Assembly (NCBI GenBank): GCA_020849475.1
Contig: JADLGE010000024.1
Coordinates: 1-64,000 of the forward strand
Reading direction: 5' to 3'
Length of the DNA stretch: 64,000 nucleotides
Source: Gammaproteobacteria bacterium
Lineage (GTDB): Bacteria; Pseudomonadota; Gammaproteobacteria; Ga0077536
Shown: in pieces, positions 3 to 32,284 of the stretch
How positions within the stretch are numbered: position 1 is the stretch's first letter
Layout of the letters: each line of letters opens with the position of its first letter
Position numbers and translations under genes: made by a program
Notes under the pieces: model-generated
What the model was told of the DNA's origin: nothing
The model's input: only the letters and a program-made list of their open reading frames with translations
The model's database searches: none

Positions 3-2111
3 AGCAACAACGGCAGCTTCAGCTTGTTGAACGCAGGCGCGACCGATAACAGCGCCCTGTCGGTCGGCATCGACACCTCGAGCGCCGGACACAAGAGCGG
101 CACGGCGACCATCAACCTCGCTTCGGACGGTACGGGCACCAGCGGCTTCGCGGCACTCGGCATCGGCACGCAGACGGTCAACGTCAGCGGTGATGTGTTC
201 CGTCTGGCGAGCGCCAGCGCGCTGGCGAGCAATGTGGTGTTTGCCAACCGTCATGTCGGCGAATCGGCTTTCCAGGCGCTGAGTCTCACCAATACCGCGG
301 CCGCCGACGGCTTCTCGGAATCCCTCGACGCGGCTTTCACCGGCCTCGCCGGCGACGGCGTACAACAGGGCAGCGTGCAGCAACTCGCCGCCGGCCAGAC
401 CAGTGCGGCTGGCCTCATCGTCGGCATCAACACCGGCACCGCCGGCCACAAGGTCGGCAGCGCAACCGTGACCTTCACCTCCAATGGTGCGGGCAGCAGC
501 GACCTCGGCTTGACCGGCATCGGCAGCCAGACGGTCAACGTCGTGGGTGATGTCTATCGCCTCGCCAGCGCTGGCCCGGTGGCGGCGGTGCAGTTTGGCA
601 ATGTGCATGTCGGCGATGTCGCGAGCCGCACTTTGAGCCTGACCAACACCGCGCTGGCCGACGGTTTCTCCGAAAGCCTCGACGCGGCCTTCAGCGGTGT
701 GTCCGATGCGCGCATCCAGACCAGCGGCAGCGTGGCGAATCTCGCGGCGGGCGCGAGCGATGGCAGCTCGCTGGTGGTCGGCCTCGATACCAGCGTGGCG
801 GGCAGCCTGACGGGCTTTGCGACCTTGCAGTTCACGTCCAATGGCGCCGGCACCAGCGGCCTCGGCTTGACCAGCCTTGGTTCGCAGAACGTCGGTGTGA
901 CCACCAACGTGGCGGTGTACCGCTTTGCCGAAGGCGCGCTCGACAACGTGCCGCCGGTCGACTTTGGCGCGCATCGCGTCGGCGACGTGGTCGGCACGGT
1001 CGGCGTGACGGTACGCAACCTCGCCGCCAACGATGGCTTCTCGGAAGCATTGAATGCCAGTGTCGGCAGCGTCGATGCCGGCTTCACCGCCAACGGCAAC
1101 GCCAACCTGATCGCAGCCGGCAGTGCCAACGGCGCCGGCATCCAGGTCGGTCTCGACACCGCCACGGCGGGCGTCAAGAGCGGCAATGCGCATCTCGCCT
1201 ACGTGTCCGATGGCGCCGGCACCAGCAACCTCGGCCAGACCGCCGTCGGCGGCCAGGACCTCGCCATGAGCGGCCGTGTGTACGGCCAGGCCGTGGCCTC
1301 GGTCGAAACCACCAGCGTTGATTTCGGCATCGTGCATGTCGGCGACCTGGTCGGGCCGCAGGGCGTGACGGTGCGCAACCTCGCAGTCGGCTCGCTGACC
1401 GACAACCTGCTCGGCAGTGTCAGCGCGGTGCCGGCGGGCTTCACTGGCAGTGGCTCACTGGGCGCTGCCGGGCTGGCCCAGAACGCGGTCAGCAGCGCGC
1501 TCAGCATCGGCCTCGATACCAGCGAGGCACGCGTGCTGAACGGCAATGCGACGCTGACTTTCGTCAGTCATAACGACGAGATGGCGGATCTGGCGCTCGG
1601 CAACCAGAGCGTGGCGCTGCAGGCGCAGGTCAACAACTTCGCCAATCCGACGCTGGCCGAGACCAGTGGCGATGGCAGCTTGAGCAATGCACCTGCCGGC
1701 CACTTCGTCTACGACTTCGGTCAGTTGACGAGCGGCGCTGGCAGCGTCAACGGTCTGTTGGCTCTGACCAACTTCGTCACTGGTCCGGCCGACAGCTTGG
1801 GCGCGGATTTCGAGATCGACGCTGGCTCGTTCGCGCTCGGCGGCTTCGGCAGCTTCGCCGGCTTGGGCGCGGGTGGCGCGCACGATTTGTCGGTGTCGTT
1901 CAATCCGCTGATCGCGGGCCTGTTCGAGCAAGTGGTGCGCATCAACCTGTTCGGTGAGAACGCCAGCGGCTTTCACGGCAGCCTCGGCACCTTCGAGCTG
2001 ACCTTGCGTGCCGACGTGCAGGCGGTGCCGGTGCCCGGCGCGGTGTGGATGCTGGGCTCGGCCCTGGCGGGTCTGGCGGGATGGTCGCGGCGGCGTAAAG
2101 CGGCCGTGTAA
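3..2111 (+). CDS. Repetitive secreted protein with VPLPA/PEP-CTERM-like sorting tail (5' end outside window)
   Basis: The frame is open from the first bases of the window, so the N-terminus and any signal peptide are missing; about 702 residues are visible. Four units of roughly 120 residues repeat, each opening with a V-x-F-G-x-x-x-V-G-D/E motif (near bases 234, 587, 957 and 1317) and continuing through LTNTA, GFSESLDA, VGLDTS and TSNGAGTS blocks. This resembles choice-of-anchor D/Ig-like beta-sandwich repeats. The C-terminus has a VPVPGAVWML motif, a hydrophobic helix and the basic tail SRRRKAAV, which is the layout of exosortase-processed proteins. Likely an exported surface or matrix protein. 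Composition is rich in Gly, Ala, Ser and Thr with no cysteine seen. The repeat assignment is by pattern only. Confidence 0.75.
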   Translation, partial: SNNGSFSLLNAGATDNSALSVGIDTSSAGHKSGTATINLASDGTGTSGFAALGIGTQTVNVSGDVFRLASASALASNVVFANRHVGESAFQALSLTNTAAADGFSESLDAAFTGLAGDGVQQGSVQQLAAGQTSAAGLIVGINTGTAGHKVGSATVTFTSNGAGSSDLGLTGIGSQTVNVVGDVYRLASAGPVAAVQFGNVHVGDVASRTLSLTNTALADGFSESLDAAFSGVSDARIQTSGSVANLAAGASDGSSLVVGLDTSVAGSLTGFATLQFTSNGAGTSGLGLTSLGSQNVGVTTNVAVYRFAEGALDNVPPVDFGAHRVGDVVGTVGVTVRNLAANDGFSEALNASVGSVDAGFTANGNANLIAAGSANGAGIQVGLDTATAGVKSGNAHLAYVSDGAGTSNLGQTAVGGQDLAMSGRVYGQAVASVETTSVDFGIVHVGDLVGPQGVTVRNLAVGSLTDNLLGSVSAVPAGFTGSGSLGAAGLAQNAVSSALSIGLDTSEARVLNGNATLTFVSHNDEMADLALGNQSVALQAQVNNFANPTLAETSGDGSLSNAPAGHFVYDFGQLTSGAGSVNGLLALTNFVTGPADSLGADFEIDAGSFALGGFGSFAGLGAGGAHDLSVSFNPLIAGLFEQVVRINLFGENASGFHGSLGTFELTLRADVQAVPVPGAVWMLGSALAGLAGWSRRRKAAV

Positions 2112-3208: not shown

Positions 3209-3862
3209 ATGACGACAGTCGAAGTGCTGATCCCGGTCGCCGCCACGCGTATCAAGGAGCGGCCGCTGGCGCCGCGTCTCACCAGCTTGGTGGGCAAGCG
3301 TATCGCGTGGCTGGACAACATGAAGGCCAACGCCGGTGAACTGCTGCGCAATGTTGCCGAAGTCCTGCGCACGCGCGGCCATGGCTTTGAAATGGTCATC
3401 GCCGCCAAGAACGCCACCGCCGCCGCGCCGGATGCGGTGATGGCGCACCTCAAGACCTGCGACGCGGTGGTGCTGGCCATCTCCGACTGAGGCTCCTGTA
3501 CGTCGTGGAGTGTCCATGACTCGATCGTGCTTGAAACCGCCGGCATTCCAACGGCGGTGATCTGCAGTGATGAATTCGGCCCGCTGGGTCGCGCCGAAGC
3601 GCAGGTATTGGGCCTGGGCGCCTTGCCGCTGCTGCCGATTCCCCATCCGCTGGCCGGCAATGACGCCGCGCTGGTGCGGGCCAAGGCCGAGGCCATCGCC
3701 GACGAAGTGCTGGCCGCCTTGACCGACAGCGCGGCGACGCTCGCGGCGCGCCACGGTGGCCGCTTCCTGGCCTTGACCGACAAGCGCATGGCGGGCGGTG
3801 TGGTATGCATCGACGAGGCCTGCGTCTACGACCCCGGCCTCGCGCGGGGTGGCGCCTCATGA
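3209..3862 (+). CDS. UGSC-family selenoprotein, copy 1 (TGA at 3488-3490 read as selenocysteine)
   Basis: The frame from ATG 3209 reaches TGA at 3488, and the same frame continues to a TGA at 3860-3862. Read through, it gives 217 residues with Sec94 in the sequence C84-D-A-V-V-L-A-I-S-D-U-G-S-C-T-S-W. That is the UGSC motif of a selenoprotein family first recognised in marine metagenomes. The part before the TGA looks like an alternating beta/alpha fold (RIAWLDNMKANAGELL); the part after it stays coding-like (IPTAVICSDEFGPLGRA, LPIPHPLAG). A second gene in this window has the same TGA at the same place. The Sec/Cys pair (94 and 97) is probably redox active; substrate unknown. It overlaps the partner gene by ATGA. 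Sec insertion needs selA, selB, selC and selD elsewhere in the genome. Confidence 0.9.
3488..3520 (+). promoter_or_regulatory. Bacterial SECIS-like hairpin after the UGA codon, copy 1
   Basis: After the TGA, bases 3502-3508 (GTCGTGG) pair with 3514-3520 (CCATGAC) in seven pairs, one of them G-U, closing the five-base loop AGTGT. Eighteen bases lie between the UGA and the loop, and G is the second loop base. Both agree with the accepted bacterial SECIS model (G in the first two loop positions, loop 16-37 bases after UGA). SelB would be the reader. Folding was done by eye. Confidence 0.75.
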
Positions 3863-4914
3863 GCGACAGCATCCATCTCGACGTCGACACCGTCGACGAC
3901 GAATTCGAAGCGCGTGGCTGGAGTGATGGCCTGCCGGTGGTGGCGCCGACCCGCGCGCGCGTCGATGCCATGCTGCGCTGTTGCGATCGCGCGCCCGACC
4001 TCGAACTCGGCACCATGCCGCCGCGGCATGGCATCGTCACGCCGGAGATCCTTGCCATCAATGCCGTGATGGCGGGCTGTCGGCCCGAATATTTTCCGGT
4101 GGTGCTGGCGGCAGTCGAGGCCATGCTGGAACCGGCTTTCAATCTGTTCGCGGTGCAGGCCACCACCCATCCCTGCGCGCCCTGTGTGATTGTCAACGGA
4201 CCGATAGCCCGCGAGCTCGGCATCAACGCGCGCTATGGCGCTTTCGGCCCTGGCGCGCGTGCCAATGCCACCATCGGCCGCGCGGTGCGCCTGATTCTGT
4301 TGAACGTCGGCGGCGCGGCGGCCGGTGTGCTGGACCGCTCCACCCAGGGCCAGCCCGCCAAGTACGCGTTCTGTATCGCTGAAAACGAAGCCGAGAGTCC
4401 GTGGCCGGCACTGCATGTCGAGCGCGGCTTCGACAGTGGGCACTCGACCGTGACAGTGACCGGCGCCGAAGGCCCACACAACCTCAACGATCATGTCAGC
4501 GACCGTGCCGACGGCATCCTCGCCACTCTCAAGGGCGCGATGAGCGACATGGGCAGCAACAACGCCTATCTCTACGGCCAACCGACCATCGCCTTCGGTC
4601 CCGAGCATGCCGCGATCCTGGCCGCCGATGGTTACAGCAAGGATGACATCCGGCGCTATGTGTTCGATGAAGTGCGCTTGCCACGCGCCCTGTGGCAGCG
4701 CGGTGGCATGGCCGGTATGTTTCCGGATCTGTTTCCCGATGAGGATATGAAACCCATCATCAAGTGCGCCGAAGATCTTCTGGTCGTGGTGGTGGGCGGT
4801 TTCGGTCGGCACTCGTGCTGGCTGCCAACCTTCGGCGACACCACGCGCGCCGTCACGCGATTGATTGCGCGCGCCGACGGCAGCGCCTTGCTCTCGGTGC
4901 GCGAACTGCTCTGA
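3859..4914 (+). CDS. UGSC-partner protein with internal CAPC motif
   Basis: A 351-residue soluble protein of no family I can name. The ATG at 3859 overlaps the selenoprotein stop (ATGA), so translation is probably coupled. Along most of its length it matches the protein at 18217-19638: RGWSDGLPVV near residue 20, LAINAVMAGCRPEYFP near 65-80, VNGP near 112, RANATIGRA, and a later GPEHA. Residues 106-109 are CAPC, a possible dithiol site that the paralog lacks. No signal peptide or membrane helix is evident, so it is probably cytoplasmic. Because both copies sit next to a UGSC selenoprotein, I infer it is the obligate partner, perhaps the substrate-binding or redox-relay subunit. Confidence 0.8.
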   Translation: MSDSIHLDVDTVDDEFEARGWSDGLPVVAPTRARVDAMLRCCDRAPDLELGTMPPRHGIVTPEILAINAVMAGCRPEYFPVVLAAVEAMLEPAFNLFAVQATTHPCAPCVIVNGPIARELGINARYGAFGPGARANATIGRAVRLILLNVGGAAAGVLDRSTQGQPAKYAFCIAENEAESPWPALHVERGFDSGHSTVTVTGAEGPHNLNDHVSDRADGILATLKGAMSDMGSNNAYLYGQPTIAFGPEHAAILAADGYSKDDIRRYVFDEVRLPRALWQRGGMAGMFPDLFPDEDMKPIIKCAEDLLVVVVGGFGRHSCWLPTFGDTTRAVTRLIARADGSALLSVRELL

Positions 4915-5059
4915 GGGAGCTCTGAAGAACCGTAGCGAGCGAAGGCAGGTCGTGCGCGCCCGGAGCGCAGGAACCGCAGCGTATAGGGAAATACGTGAGG
5001 ATTCCGAGCACCGGACGCGCGCGAGATACCGAGCGCAGCAGGTTCTTCAGAGTTTCCCT
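4914..5059. mobile_element. MITE-like element with terminal inverted repeats, copy A
   Basis: A 146-base segment bounded by inverted repeats AGGGAGCTCTGAAGAACC (4914-4931) and the complement of AGGGAAACTCTGAAGAACC (5041-5059). The interior 4931-5003 matches bases 32195-32267 in inverted orientation at about 60 of 73 positions. The first base is the last base of the partner gene's TGA, and the right end stops 6 bases before the DUF1840 stop codon. It therefore fills the space between two convergent genes. There is no coding content, so any movement must be non-autonomous. It may also form a large hairpin that stops transcription. Confidence 0.75.
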
Positions 5060-17698: not shown

Positions 17699-18220
17699 TT
17701 ACTGTGCTGCGCAGATCAGTTTCTTGACCTTGTCCAAGGCCTCGCGCGCCAGCGCGCGCATTTCATCATCGCTTCTATCCTGGATGGGATGGGCGACGAA
17801 CAGGCTGTCGGCATGAAAGCCCCAGGCGTTGCCCTGCGCATCGGCTGCGCCGCGAAACGCTTCCGAAGCGATGAAGCCACCGGCTACGCCGCGACTGTCG
17901 AGTTCACGTATGTCCTGCAAACTGCACGACGTACACGAGCCTCAGTCAGCCAGGCCTTCGACCACCACGTCGCAGTTAGAGGCGATGTCCTGCAGCAGCG
18001 CCACCGGCGCCGGGCGCGTGAAGGTTGGCTTCTTGTAGCGTTTGACCGTCAGGCCTTCGGCACTCAGCAAATGATCGAGGTGATCGAGAAACACGTCGCC
18101 GCGCGATTTCGAAATATCGAGCAGGCCGATGGTGAGGCCGGTCAGGCTCGCCGGTTTCGCCAGCGGCGCACGCGCGAGCGGTGCGAATTCGCCGGTCGGG
18201 TCGTAGAGGATGTCTGTCAT
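17699..18220 (-). CDS. UGSC-family selenoprotein, copy 2 (TGA at 17942-17944 read as selenocysteine)
   Basis: On the minus strand ATG 18220 opens a frame that reaches TGA at 17944-17942 and continues in the same frame to TAA at 17699. Read through, it gives 173 residues with Sec93 in C83-D-V-V-V-E-G-L-A-D-U-G-S-C-T-S-C. The upstream half is TIGLLDISKSRGDVFLDHLDHLL, like copy 1's IAWLDNMKANAGELL; after Sec it runs GGFIASEAFRGAADAQG and FVAHPIQDRSDDE, parallel to copy 1. An extra Cys99 replaces copy 1's Trp100. The start overlaps the stop of the Trx-fused partner (ATGA). Probably a Sec/Cys redox enzyme; substrate unknown. Confidence 0.9.
17912..17944 (-). promoter_or_regulatory. Bacterial SECIS-like hairpin after the UGA codon, copy 2
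   Basis: On the minus strand GTCGTGC (17930-17924) pairs with GCAGGAC (17918-17912) around AGTTT, with one G-G mismatch. Position, stem length, loop length and loop AGT match copy 1 exactly, and the loop-closing pair is C-G where copy 1 has G-C. This compensatory change supports a real structure. Confidence 0.7.
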
Positions 18221-19638
18221 GCACGTATCTCCCGGGTCACAGGGTCGGTACCGAGCTCGCCTTTCACCAGCCAGCCCGGAATGATGGCGGAAAACATGCC
18301 GGCCGGGCCGCCGGCCCGCACCAGGGTCAGGCCGCCGTCGCGGAATTTTGCACTGAGGCCGTCGCCAGGCTGGCCGCTCGCGCCGCGTGCGGTGCCCATG
18401 CCGAGGTCGACGCCCTTGATACGGGTCGCCGCATGCAGCGCCGCGGTGGCATCGGCCTTGCTCCAGCCGGCCTGGTCGAACACGCGGCCATGCTCGGGGC
18501 CAATCACCACCACGGCGTCGGCGCCGTTGATCATGTCGATGTGATTCAAACCGCGCAGGCTGCCGGCCAATGAGTAGACCAAGGCTTCGGGCGTGCGCGA
18601 TTTCTGATCGGCGCAGCCGAGCGGGCCGTCGGCGCTGAACACGGTCACCGCGGACTGCGCGCGCGACAGGCCGCGGTCTTGTGCAAGCGTGGTCCACGGC
18701 GTGTCTTCATCCTCGGCGAAACAGAAGCCGAGCTTGCCGGGATGGCCAAAGGTCGACATGTCGGTTTCCTGCGGCTTGCCGCCGCCGATGTTGCGCACCG
18801 CGAGTTGTAATGCGCGGCCGATGGTGGCGTTGGCGCGATTGCCCTGACCGAGCACATTGCCGGCCCAGTTCATGCCCAAGGCTTTGCGCACCGGACCATT
18901 GACAACGATCATCGGACCCGAGAACCAGGTGGTGGCGAGCAGGCCGTGCAGACAGAACGCCGGATCCAGCGCGGCCTCGACCGCCGCCAGCACGGCCGGA
19001 AAGTATTCCGGTTTGCAGCCCGCCAGCACCGCGTTGATGGCGACCTTCTCGACCGTGCAGTCGGTCAGCAGTGGCGGCATGCGGCCCAGCACTTCGTGGG
19101 GCGCGCGCGCGGTGGCCTTGAGCATGCGATAGATGCGTTCGGCGGTGGGTGGCACCACCGGCAGGCCGTCGCTCCAGCCACGCTCGAAGCAGTATTCGAT
19201 GCTGTCGGACAGTTCGGGCACGGCGAGTTCGCGCGAGCTGATGCGAAAGTCGCCGTACCGCAAGGCGAGACGCTCGGCGATGCCGGGCTGCACCGCCAGC
19301 GAACCACAGCCCGGACGGTATTGCGGCAGCGATTCGCCGAGGTTCGCCATACCGGTCAGCGCCCGCCATTCGTCGCGTTCCCAGCCCACCACCCGCGCTG
19401 CTTCGCGTCCGCCCTCGATCTTGATGAGGGTGGGCACGGTTTCTATGTGCAAACGATAGGAGGCCTCGAGACTGCGATCGTCAATGGCCTGACGAGTCGA
19501 GGGGAAATCCGGCTGGTCCTGCACATAGACCGTCAATGCGGCGCCGCTGTTCTCGATGGACTTCAGCACCGGGTTGACCAGTACGCAGGTCGGGCAGTCC
19601 TGTTTGACGACTGCGATCAGGCCTTCGGGTATTTGCAT
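18217..19638 (-). CDS. Thioredoxin-like domain fused to UGSC-partner domain
   Basis: A 473-residue protein. Residues 1-95 look like a thioredoxin fold: LIAVVKQDCPTCVLVNPVL (CPTC at 15-18), YVQDQPDFPS, and the cis-proline strand ETVPTLIKIEGG near 66. Residues 145-473 match the partner protein at 3859-4914: CFERGWSDGLPVVPPT, KVAINAVLAGCKPEYFP, VNGPVRKALG, RANATIGRA, VIGPEHGRVFD. Where the first partner has CAPC this copy has WFSGPM, so the dithiol seems to have moved to the fused domain. The start at 19638 (MQIPEG) is chosen because the longer frame adds low-complexity sequence. Translation into the selenoprotein gene is coupled by ATGA. Confidence 0.82.
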   Translation of the reverse strand: MQIPEGLIAVVKQDCPTCVLVNPVLKSIENSGAALTVYVQDQPDFPSTRQAIDDRSLEASYRLHIETVPTLIKIEGGREAARVVGWERDEWRALTGMANLGESLPQYRPGCGSLAVQPGIAERLALRYGDFRISSRELAVPELSDSIEYCFERGWSDGLPVVPPTAERIYRMLKATARAPHEVLGRMPPLLTDCTVEKVAINAVLAGCKPEYFPAVLAAVEAALDPAFCLHGLLATTWFSGPMIVVNGPVRKALGMNWAGNVLGQGNRANATIGRALQLAVRNIGGGKPQETDMSTFGHPGKLGFCFAEDEDTPWTTLAQDRGLSRAQSAVTVFSADGPLGCADQKSRTPEALVYSLAGSLRGLNHIDMINGADAVVVIGPEHGRVFDQAGWSKADATAALHAATRIKGVDLGMGTARGASGQPGDGLSAKFRDGGLTLVRAGGPAGMFSAIIPGWLVKGELGTDPVTREIRA

Positions 19639-19765: not shown

Positions 19766-20791
19766 ATGAGCCCAAACCGCGACGGCACTCCTCCCACACC
19801 ACCGGCCCGCAGTCGCCTCGCCATCCGCGCGCTGGTGGCGGGCCTCAGCCCGCAGGTCATGCCGATGATCATCCGCGACATCGCGCGCGATGGCATGAGC
19901 CTCGAATTCGAAGATCACGCAAGCGCGGTCGATGAGCGCTGGGCGACACCCGGCGCAGGCGTGCTGGTGTTTTTCGTGTCGGTCATCGACGGCCAGCGCA
20001 AGCGCACCTCGGTGTTCGGCCGCATCCGACAGCGTGAAGCCCATGGCCTGGTGGTGCGCCTGCTGGGCCTTGAAGAAGACACTGTCGAAGCGCTCAACTA
20101 CCTGTTGTCATTGTCCGGTGCGAAGCGCGCCAAGGCCACGCCGCCGCCGGCGCCGGCGGTGTCGAACGCCACCGTGCTGGCGGAATGCGGTGCGCTGCTG
20201 CGTCGGTACGCACCGCTGCTCGCCGCGCATTATCTCGATGGCGTGGTGATTCAATTGCAGGGCTTGAAAGCGCAGGCCGGCGCGGCCGCGGAGCACAAGA
20301 AATACAGCTCCATGCTCATGGAACTCAACGCCGCCCGTGCGCGCCTCGACGCCACCATGCAGACCCGCAGCGCGCTGGCCCTGGACAATCTGTTTCGTCA
20401 CGACCAAAGCGCGCTCAGCAATGGCGAAGGCAGTCTGTCGCTGGTCGAGTCCATCGACCTGCGTTCATCGCTGGCGGTGATGGAAGCGATACATGAAATT
20501 TCCACGCGCCTGCGCAGCGTGTGGCTGGCCTGCGAACGCGCGCTGCAATACATCGTGCCGCCGCGCACCGATCTGACGGCGGTGGCGCCGGGCACCTTGT
20601 GTCACCAGATTCGCGACACGATTTATTTCGATGAACACCTGACGCGCCTGCGCCAGGTGGATTTGACCAAGGGCTTCAGCGAGCCCTTCATCGCCGCGCT
20701 CGAAGCGCTGTACACCGACATGAGCGCGGTGTTCGCGCGCCACGGCGTCGGGCCCGGCGGCGATGGCTCGGCGTGGAATCAGCGCGACTGA
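19766..20791 (+). CDS. PilZ-like/DUF1631-like protein of unknown function
   Basis: A 341-residue protein. The N-terminal 100 residues look like a diverged PilZ domain (RSRLAIRALVAG, IRDIARDGMSLEFED, FFVSVIDGQRKRTSVFGRI), although the arginine motif is weak. The rest is helical, with LAECGALLRRYAPLLAAHYLDGVVIQLQ and LVESIDLRSSLAVMEAIHEISTRLRSVWLACERAL, which recalls the helical DUF1631 family. No signal peptide or transmembrane helix. ATG 19766 follows AAGGATC. The divergent neighbour is selenoprotein locus 2, 127 bases away. Function not assigned. Confidence 0.6.
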   Translation: MSPNRDGTPPTPPARSRLAIRALVAGLSPQVMPMIIRDIARDGMSLEFEDHASAVDERWATPGAGVLVFFVSVIDGQRKRTSVFGRIRQREAHGLVVRLLGLEEDTVEALNYLLSLSGAKRAKATPPPAPAVSNATVLAECGALLRRYAPLLAAHYLDGVVIQLQGLKAQAGAAAEHKKYSSMLMELNAARARLDATMQTRSALALDNLFRHDQSALSNGEGSLSLVESIDLRSSLAVMEAIHEISTRLRSVWLACERALQYIVPPRTDLTAVAPGTLCHQIRDTIYFDEHLTRLRQVDLTKGFSEPFIAALEALYTDMSAVFARHGVGPGGDGSAWNQRD

Positions 20792-32076: not shown

Positions 32077-32284
32077 AACAGGCTGATGAAAAACTACTGC
32101 GCTCGGCATTCTGCGTCCCAGCGGTGCTCGGACACTTCCCAAGGAAGTGGACCGCGGCACGCGGGTCCGCAGGATGCTCGCCAGTGGCGAACACAATCCT
32201 CACGTATTTCCGTATACCCTGCGGTTCCTGCGCGCCGCCGGAACGCAGACTGCCTCCGCTCGCTACGTTTTTAACCAGCCTGCT
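32077..32284. mobile_element. MITE-like element with terminal inverted repeats, copy B
   Basis: A 208-base segment with ends AACAGGCTGATGAAAAAC (32077-32094) and the complement of AGCAGGCTGGTTAAAAAC (32267-32284), matching at 15 of 18. The interior 32195-32267 is related to copy A in inverted orientation at about 60 of 73 positions, yet the ends differ from copy A. It starts 26 bases upstream of the dehydrogenase start on the minus strand and ends 145 bases before the zinc dehydrogenase start, so it sits where divergent promoters should be. Confidence 0.7.

What the first reader, a model, noticed from the sequence alone, without database searches (positions are those of the whole stretch)
3209..4914. 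Selenoprotein locus 1: UGSC protein plus partner, hidden by an in-frame TGA
The TGA at 3488 is followed by codons for G-S-C-T-S-W in the same frame, and a coding-like sequence continues for 123 more residues. The UGSC signature is known from metagenomic selenoprotein surveys. The partner gene overlaps by ATGA and has a CAPC motif. A standard annotation would report two fragments or a truncated 93-residue protein.
Basis: partly seen in the sequence, partly recalled or inferred. Interest (0 to 1): 0.95.

Follow-up and report, generated by a model that had tools for sequence, protein, structure and literature searches.

The report
Selenoprotein with a constant partner protein
This gene uses a UGA "stop" codon to insert the rare amino acid selenocysteine into a protein of a known but functionally unexplained family, and it nearly always travels with, and is often fused to, a second unnamed protein, which suggests that the two form one selenium-dependent enzyme.

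Summary
Confirmed. Window 3209-3862 is a gene of the known UGSC selenoprotein family (NF041046 133 bits, cut-off 125; PF24696 165 bits, cut-off 25), with Sec at codon 94 (TGA 3488-3490) and an ATGA overlap with a partner gene (3859-4914). The genome carries selA, selB, selD and a tRNA-Sec with anticodon TCA. All 65 UGSC matches in 58 related genomes have exactly one in-frame TGA. Among 124 distinct UGSC domains the site is Sec in 116, Cys in 8, nothing else. A hairpin 15-33 nt from the TGA keeps pairing through silent changes. The family is published, without function. Added here: (1) the Sec domain models as a Rossmann/flavodoxin-like fold and shows weak but real-looking similarity to the Sec domain of glycine/D-proline reductases (GrdB/PrdB); (2) the partner, without Pfam or NCBIfam model, lies near UGSC at 73 of 80 named loci and is often fused to it; (3) the second motif Cys is dispensable; (4) the locus-2 partner carries a thioredoxin domain. 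Best reading: a two-subunit Sec-nucleophile enzyme, partner holding the substrate, thiols re-reducing the Sec; substrate unknown.

The parts
3209..3862 (+). UGSC selenoprotein gene, 217 residues with Sec94
   Evidence: NF041046 and PF24696 over cut-off
3488..3490 (+). TGA read as selenocysteine (UGSCTSW)
   Evidence: 116 Sec and 8 Cys at this site in 124 distinct UGSC domains
3502..3520 (+). bSECIS-like hairpin: 8 bp stem, GUG loop
   Evidence: consensus pairs 15-22/26-33 counted from the TGA; -9.3 kcal/mol, z -3.76 for these 19 nt (picked after the fact); the full 45 nt give z -0.79
3859..3862 (+). ATGA overlap of UGSC stop and partner start
3859..4914 (+). partner protein, 351 residues, no Pfam or NCBIfam family
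   Evidence: AlphaFold2 pLDDT 92.6, pTM 0.91
17699..18220 (-). second UGSC selenoprotein gene, 173 residues, Sec93 at 17944-17942
   Evidence: starts in an ATGA overlap with the partner stop
18217..19638 (-). second partner gene with N-terminal thioredoxin-like domain (CPTC, VPT); the mechanical ORF begins at 19896 but sequence conserved in relatives begins near 19638

Best explanation
Shown by sequence evidence: a UGA-encoded selenocysteine at residue 94 of a UGSC-family protein, in a genome with the whole Sec machinery, overlapping (ATGA) a partner gene. Inferred: UGSC and partner form one enzyme. UGSC supplies the Sec on a Rossmann/flavodoxin-like domain that shares ancestry with the Sec domain of GrdB/PrdB-type reductases; the partner supplies most of the substrate pocket. 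The Sec selenolate attacks a polarised bond of a small molecule held between the two, giving a selenium adduct or oxidised selenium, which is released by the neighbouring Cys where present and by thioredoxin or glutathione. The two-subunit enzyme with GrdB/PrdB ancestry I put at about 0.6; nucleophilic reductive cleavage as the chemistry at about 0.35; the substrate is unknown.
For: Sec. Hairpin: in the 43 of 84 non-redundant Sec genes that have a Val codon at nt 25-27, its silent third base tracks its pairing partner at nt 21 (table 27,1 / 0,15; Fisher 1.1e-10, relatedness not corrected). One unit: partner near UGSC at 73 of 80 named loci (70 within 1.5 kb, 46 UGSC-first and 24 partner-first, plus 3 at 2.2-2.7 kb); 30 distinct sequences with both domains in one reading frame; a natural fusion (L056, its partner part 54-56% identical to this one) folds as one body, pLDDT 95.6, pTM 0.94; the partner occurs in the same 31 of 58 genomes as UGSC plus one where it lies at a contig edge. 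GrdB ancestry: 26 of 61 UGSC proteins match TIGR01917, best E 3e-6; hhalign against GRDB-like proteins puts the Sec/Cys columns in register, P 5.5e-5, probability 66%. Single nucleophile: the second motif Cys is Ser in 5 of 116 Sec and 2 of 8 Cys forms. Thiol recycling: locus-2 partners carry a thioredoxin domain (profile E 2.5e-6); a GST gene follows the partner in three locus-1 relatives scanned.
Against: GrdB similarity is weak: 19.2 bits against a cut-off of 602, hhalign probability only 66%. The partner does not align with GRDB-like proteins (hhalign probability 0.7%) and has no clear solved relative (best Foldseek E 1.1e-3; best VIA Z 5.9, 86 residues, 2.6 A). No substrate is indicated: neighbours are mixed, the commonest being TctC receptors at 16 of 118 scanned, which are common anyway in the Betaproteobacteria sampled (recalled). 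No GST or thioredoxin domain belongs to locus 1 itself. Contact is predicted from a fusion, not measured. 7 of 80 named partner loci show no UGSC (one of them, L053, is cut at the partner's start).
Confidence: 0.6

Rival explanations
1. UGSC is a thioredoxin- or peroxiredoxin-type redox protein: Sec and the Cys three places on form a selenenylsulfide that moves electrons to or from the partner. [quoted passage not shown]
For: PMC2398784 (passages) gives this fold and a redox role; the UxxC motif is present in 111 of 116 Sec forms; a real thioredoxin domain is fused to locus-2 partners.
Against: The second Cys is replaced by Ser in 5 of 116 Sec and 2 of 8 Cys forms; the model's best structural matches for the UGSC part are Rossmann/flavodoxin-like (8s7v_H Z 11.1, 2.8 A over 127 residues; MetH fragment 1k7y Z 9.7, 3.7 A over 131; CheY 3chy Z 9.4, 3.0 A over 118); sequence similarity is to GrdB.
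Confidence: 0.2
2. The partner is the enzyme (for instance a hydratase, hydrolase or epimerase of small acids) and UGSC is a redox-sensing or activating subunit.
For: Tandem arrays of three to four partners with few or no UGSC nearby (L124, L125, L127, L130); weak resemblance to class I fumarate hydratase (Foldseek E 1.1e-3); strictly conserved polar residues D23, R141, E175 in 68 of 68.
Against: Sec or Cys at the site is invariant (124 of 124), which a mere sensor need not keep; the fumarase match is within noise (VIA Z 4.7-4.8).
Confidence: 0.17
3. The TGA is a real stop, a sequencing error or a pseudogene lesion; only the 93-residue fragment is made.
For: The 93-residue ORF exists.
Against: 65 of 65 homologues in relatives have one TGA; purifying selection downstream; full Sec machinery; silent compensatory changes in the hairpin.
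Confidence: 0.02

Closest known systems
UGSC family (seleno)protein, NCBIfam NF041046 / Pfam PF24696; 'UGSC-containing protein' of the ocean selenoprotein surveys (PMC2398784)
   Same: Sequence over both curated cut-offs, U/CGSC motif, Sec by in-frame TGA; the survey also saw a UGSC fusion with a domain called Unknown_1
   Different: Nothing in membership. Added here: partner as a near-constant neighbour, GrdB/PrdB similarity, non-essential second Cys, thioredoxin-fused partner. Whether Unknown_1 is this partner could not be checked (supplement not readable)
GrdB / PrdB Sec subunits of glycine, sarcosine, betaine and D-proline reductases (PF07355, TIGR01917, TIGR04483)
   Same: Sec with a following Cys, then a helix with an LExxGI(P/A)T pattern; detectable profile similarity
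   Different: Far under the family cut-offs; short stand-alone domain; a partner that does not align with GRDB-like proteins; the own genome has separate PrdB-like UPxC genes
FarB/FarE fluoroacetate-cleaving GrdB-like pair of Cloacibacillus (PMC10838667, abstract and passages)
   Same: Sec-bearing GrdB-like subunit plus second subunit, proposed selenolate attack on a polar bond
   Different: A likeness in working at most: no homology of the partner to FarE and no fluoroacetate link was shown here

Membership tests
UGSC family (NF041046, PF24696) | score over curated cut-off | tested here: met
   133.2 vs 125 and 165.2 vs 25 bits
UGSC family (NF041046, PF24696) | Sec or Cys at the first motif position | tested here: met
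   TGA at 3488; 116 Sec, 8 Cys of 124
Bacterial selenoprotein | selA, selB, selC, selD in the genome | tested here: met
   selA 596 bits, selD 424 bits, selB 431 bits, tRNA-Sec 65 bits and anticodon tca
Bacterial selenoprotein | SECIS hairpin just after the UGA | tested here: met
   hairpin 3502-3520; all 8 pairs in 41 of 84 non-redundant Sec genes, at most 4 in 12 of 84, 2-6 in the 8 Cys genes
Bacterial selenoprotein | Sec physically in the protein | not testable with these tools
   needs 75Se label or mass spectrometry
GrdB (TIGR01917) | score over curated cut-off | tested here: not met
   19.2 vs 602.2 bits
GrdB/PrdB superfamily Sec domain | homologous domain with Sec in register | tested here: inconclusive
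   26 of 61 members at E<=0.01, best 3e-6; hhalign probability 66%
Thioredoxin-fold selenoprotein | thioredoxin fold of the UGSC domain | tested here: inconclusive
   best listed matches are Rossmann/flavodoxin-like; a list of matches does not exclude others
Class I fumarate hydratase (partner) | fold match covering the domain | tested here: inconclusive
   Foldseek E 1.1e-3, VIA Z 4.7-4.8

The most novel reading that the evidence does not exclude
UGSC plus partner is a previously unrecognised two-subunit class of selenium-dependent bond-cleaving reductase, living outside the classic amino-acid fermenters (recalled): a GrdB/PrdB-derived Sec domain paired with a substrate subunit of a fold not yet solved, diversified by partner duplication (13 UGSC copies in genome G003, tandem partner arrays in Nitrospinota). 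It would give a function to one of the commonest selenoprotein families of aquatic metagenomes.
Probability: 0.3. Interest if true: 0.78.

Novelty: new member of a known kind. Interest (0 to 1): 0.48.

Why it matters
UGSC proteins are among the most abundant selenoproteins of the ocean surveys (255 Sec forms, PMC2398784, passages; 8.2% of selenoprotein genes, PMC9402790, passages), and no function was given in the papers seen. A near-constant partner, a natural fusion that folds confidently as one body, and a link to GrdB/PrdB turn an orphan family into a testable two-subunit enzyme, and the Cys forms in Siccirubricoccus and Belnapia offer versions that can be made without selenium.

Tried and rejected
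CAPC as partner motif: rejected (C106 20 of 68, C109 2 of 68).

Thioredoxin fold for UGSC: no thioredoxin among the 50 VIA rows shown; told here only, since a list does not exclude a fold. Partner fold: no PDB match at E<=0.001, no VIA Z>=8, no convincing PDB sequence match (best E 0.74); I do not claim a new fold.

Partner as the N-terminal part of GrdB: hhalign probability 0.7%, rejected.

Folding energy as SECIS evidence: the 45 nt from the Sec codon are no better than shuffles for this gene (z -0.79), and the Cys forms fold as strongly on average (both -16.4 kcal/mol). Only pair conservation and silent covariation were kept. 12 of 84 Sec genes, mostly the divergent G003 type and fusions, fit the hairpin poorly; they may use another register.

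selB and UGSC co-occurrence: strong over 58 genomes (27,4 / 4,23 with two split selB counted as present; Fisher 3e-8) but nil within the own family (27,4 / 4,1; p 0.55), so it reflects the family border; the 4 UGSC genomes without selB are 62-87% complete. Cys-form genomes: selB not found in 4 of 7 Cys-only carriers (G452, G454, G457, G458), just under the cut-off in 2 (G453, G456), present in 1 (G455); a mixed result. Sec-form genomes in that call: over cut-off in 9 of 10 (missing in G467, which gave only two hits of any kind); G459, with both forms, has it only in pieces at contig ends. Three further genomes of that call (G470-G472) have no UGSC in the locus held, but selB.

No shared substrate emerged. 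Rfam gave nothing in the window.

'Not in print' rests on the searches; abstracts and passages only, no paper was read whole.

Full report
Observation. The read-through protein is over both curated cut-offs of the UGSC family.

It is a selenoprotein gene. The genome has tRNA-Sec (65 bits; ARAGORN: anticodon tca), selB (431 bits), selA (596 bits) and selD (Cys form by eye, 424 bits), all on contig C26. PF24696 finds 65 matches in 31 of 58 related genomes, each with one TGA and no other stop; 31 of 36 genomes of the own family have it and 0 of 22 outside it. Over all loci gathered, 124 distinct UGSC domains have Sec in 116 and Cys in 8 (141 and 8 of 149 before duplicates were removed). A tree of 123 rows needs three changes for the 8 Cys forms and places them among Sec rows: Mycobacterium with Roseomonadaceae (Siccirubricoccus, Belnapia), and two separate Pseudomonadota rows. 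Purifying selection holds after the TGA (mean pN/pS 0.23, before it 0.38, 36 pairs).

SECIS. Counted from the TGA, nt 15-22 pair with 26-33 around a GUN loop. Of 84 non-redundant Sec genes (116 before filtering), 41 form all 8 pairs and the mean is 6.7; the 8 Cys genes form 2-6. At nt 21 and 27 both G-C (45) and C-G (31) occur, and among the 43 genes with a Val codon at 25-27 the silent base follows its partner (27,1 / 0,15). Relatedness inflates that Fisher value (1.1e-10), but the change is silent in the protein. In the window the hairpin is 3502-3520. Plain folding energy is no evidence: see Tried and rejected.

The partner. It has no Pfam or NCBIfam family. 70 of 80 have UGSC within 1.5 kb on the same strand, 46 UGSC-first and 24 partner-first, 3 more at 2.2-2.7 kb, 7 none. 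All three copies in this genome (3209; 18220 minus; contig C79) share an ATGA overlap, in either order. Thirty distinct sequences carry both domains in one frame, UGSC first. A Chloroflexota fusion (L056) models at pLDDT 95.6 and pTM 0.94, so the two halves are placed confidently against each other. The window's own partner models at pLDDT 92.6 and pTM 0.91 but without a clear solved relative. Conserved: D23, G73, G114, R141, E175 (68 of 68), C74 (63), C172 (62).

What kind of enzyme. The UGSC half matches Rossmann/flavodoxin-like domains. By sequence it resembles the Sec domain of glycine reductase protein B: TIGR01917 in 26 of 61 members, best E 3e-6, and hhalign against eight GRDB-like proteins aligns Sec with the U/C of UPxC (P 5.5e-5, probability 66%). 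The own genome holds three separate PrdB-like UPxC genes with in-frame TGA. The second motif Cys is Ser in 7 of 124, so a fixed UxxC couple is not required, whereas Sec or Cys at the first place is. The locus-2 partner and its relatives carry an N-terminal thioredoxin domain (CPTC and VPT invariant in 10 of 10; profile E 2.5e-6), and GSTs follow the partner in three locus-1 relatives. I infer a two-subunit enzyme: the partner binds substrate, Sec attacks a polarised bond, thiols restore it. The GrdB-like fluoroacetate system (PMC10838667) is the nearest precedent found for that chemistry; nothing here names fluoroacetate or any other substrate.

Novelty. The family is published: the 2008 ocean survey counts 255 Sec forms, suggests a Trx-like fold and mentions a fusion with 'Unknown_1' (PMC2398784, passages); a 2026 review lists it among selenoproteins largely uncharacterised (PMC13188914, passages). 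So the gene is a new member of a known kind. In the papers seen, from the searches, I found no GrdB link, no near-constant neighbouring partner and no function for UGSC.

Noticed in passing
L162 (C126), L169 (C74), L170 (C47) of the own genome: Three further PrdB-like genes with an in-frame TGA in a UPxC motif, so the genome has at least six predicted selenoproteins.
   Followed up: partly
genome G003, loci L151-L160: A same-family genome of 2.2 Mb (62% complete) has 13 UGSC copies, mostly UGSC-partner fusions with variant motifs such as USTC, yet no selB was found in it.
   Followed up: partly
L124, L125, L127, L130: Tandem arrays of three to four partner paralogues, in two cases with one UGSC about 2.7 kb away.
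   Followed up: no
L081:2235-6570: A Sec-form and a Cys-form UGSC-partner pair side by side in one Betaproteobacterium.
   Followed up: no
window 4928-5003 and 32195-32270: A 76-nt repeat in inverted orientation, 82% complementary, one copy just after the partner gene.
   Followed up: no
window 24-2111: Large ORF of repeated units of about 357 nt whose end (VPVPGAVWMLGSALAGLAGWSRRRK) looks like a PEP-CTERM/VPxPxA sorting tail (recalled).
   Followed up: no
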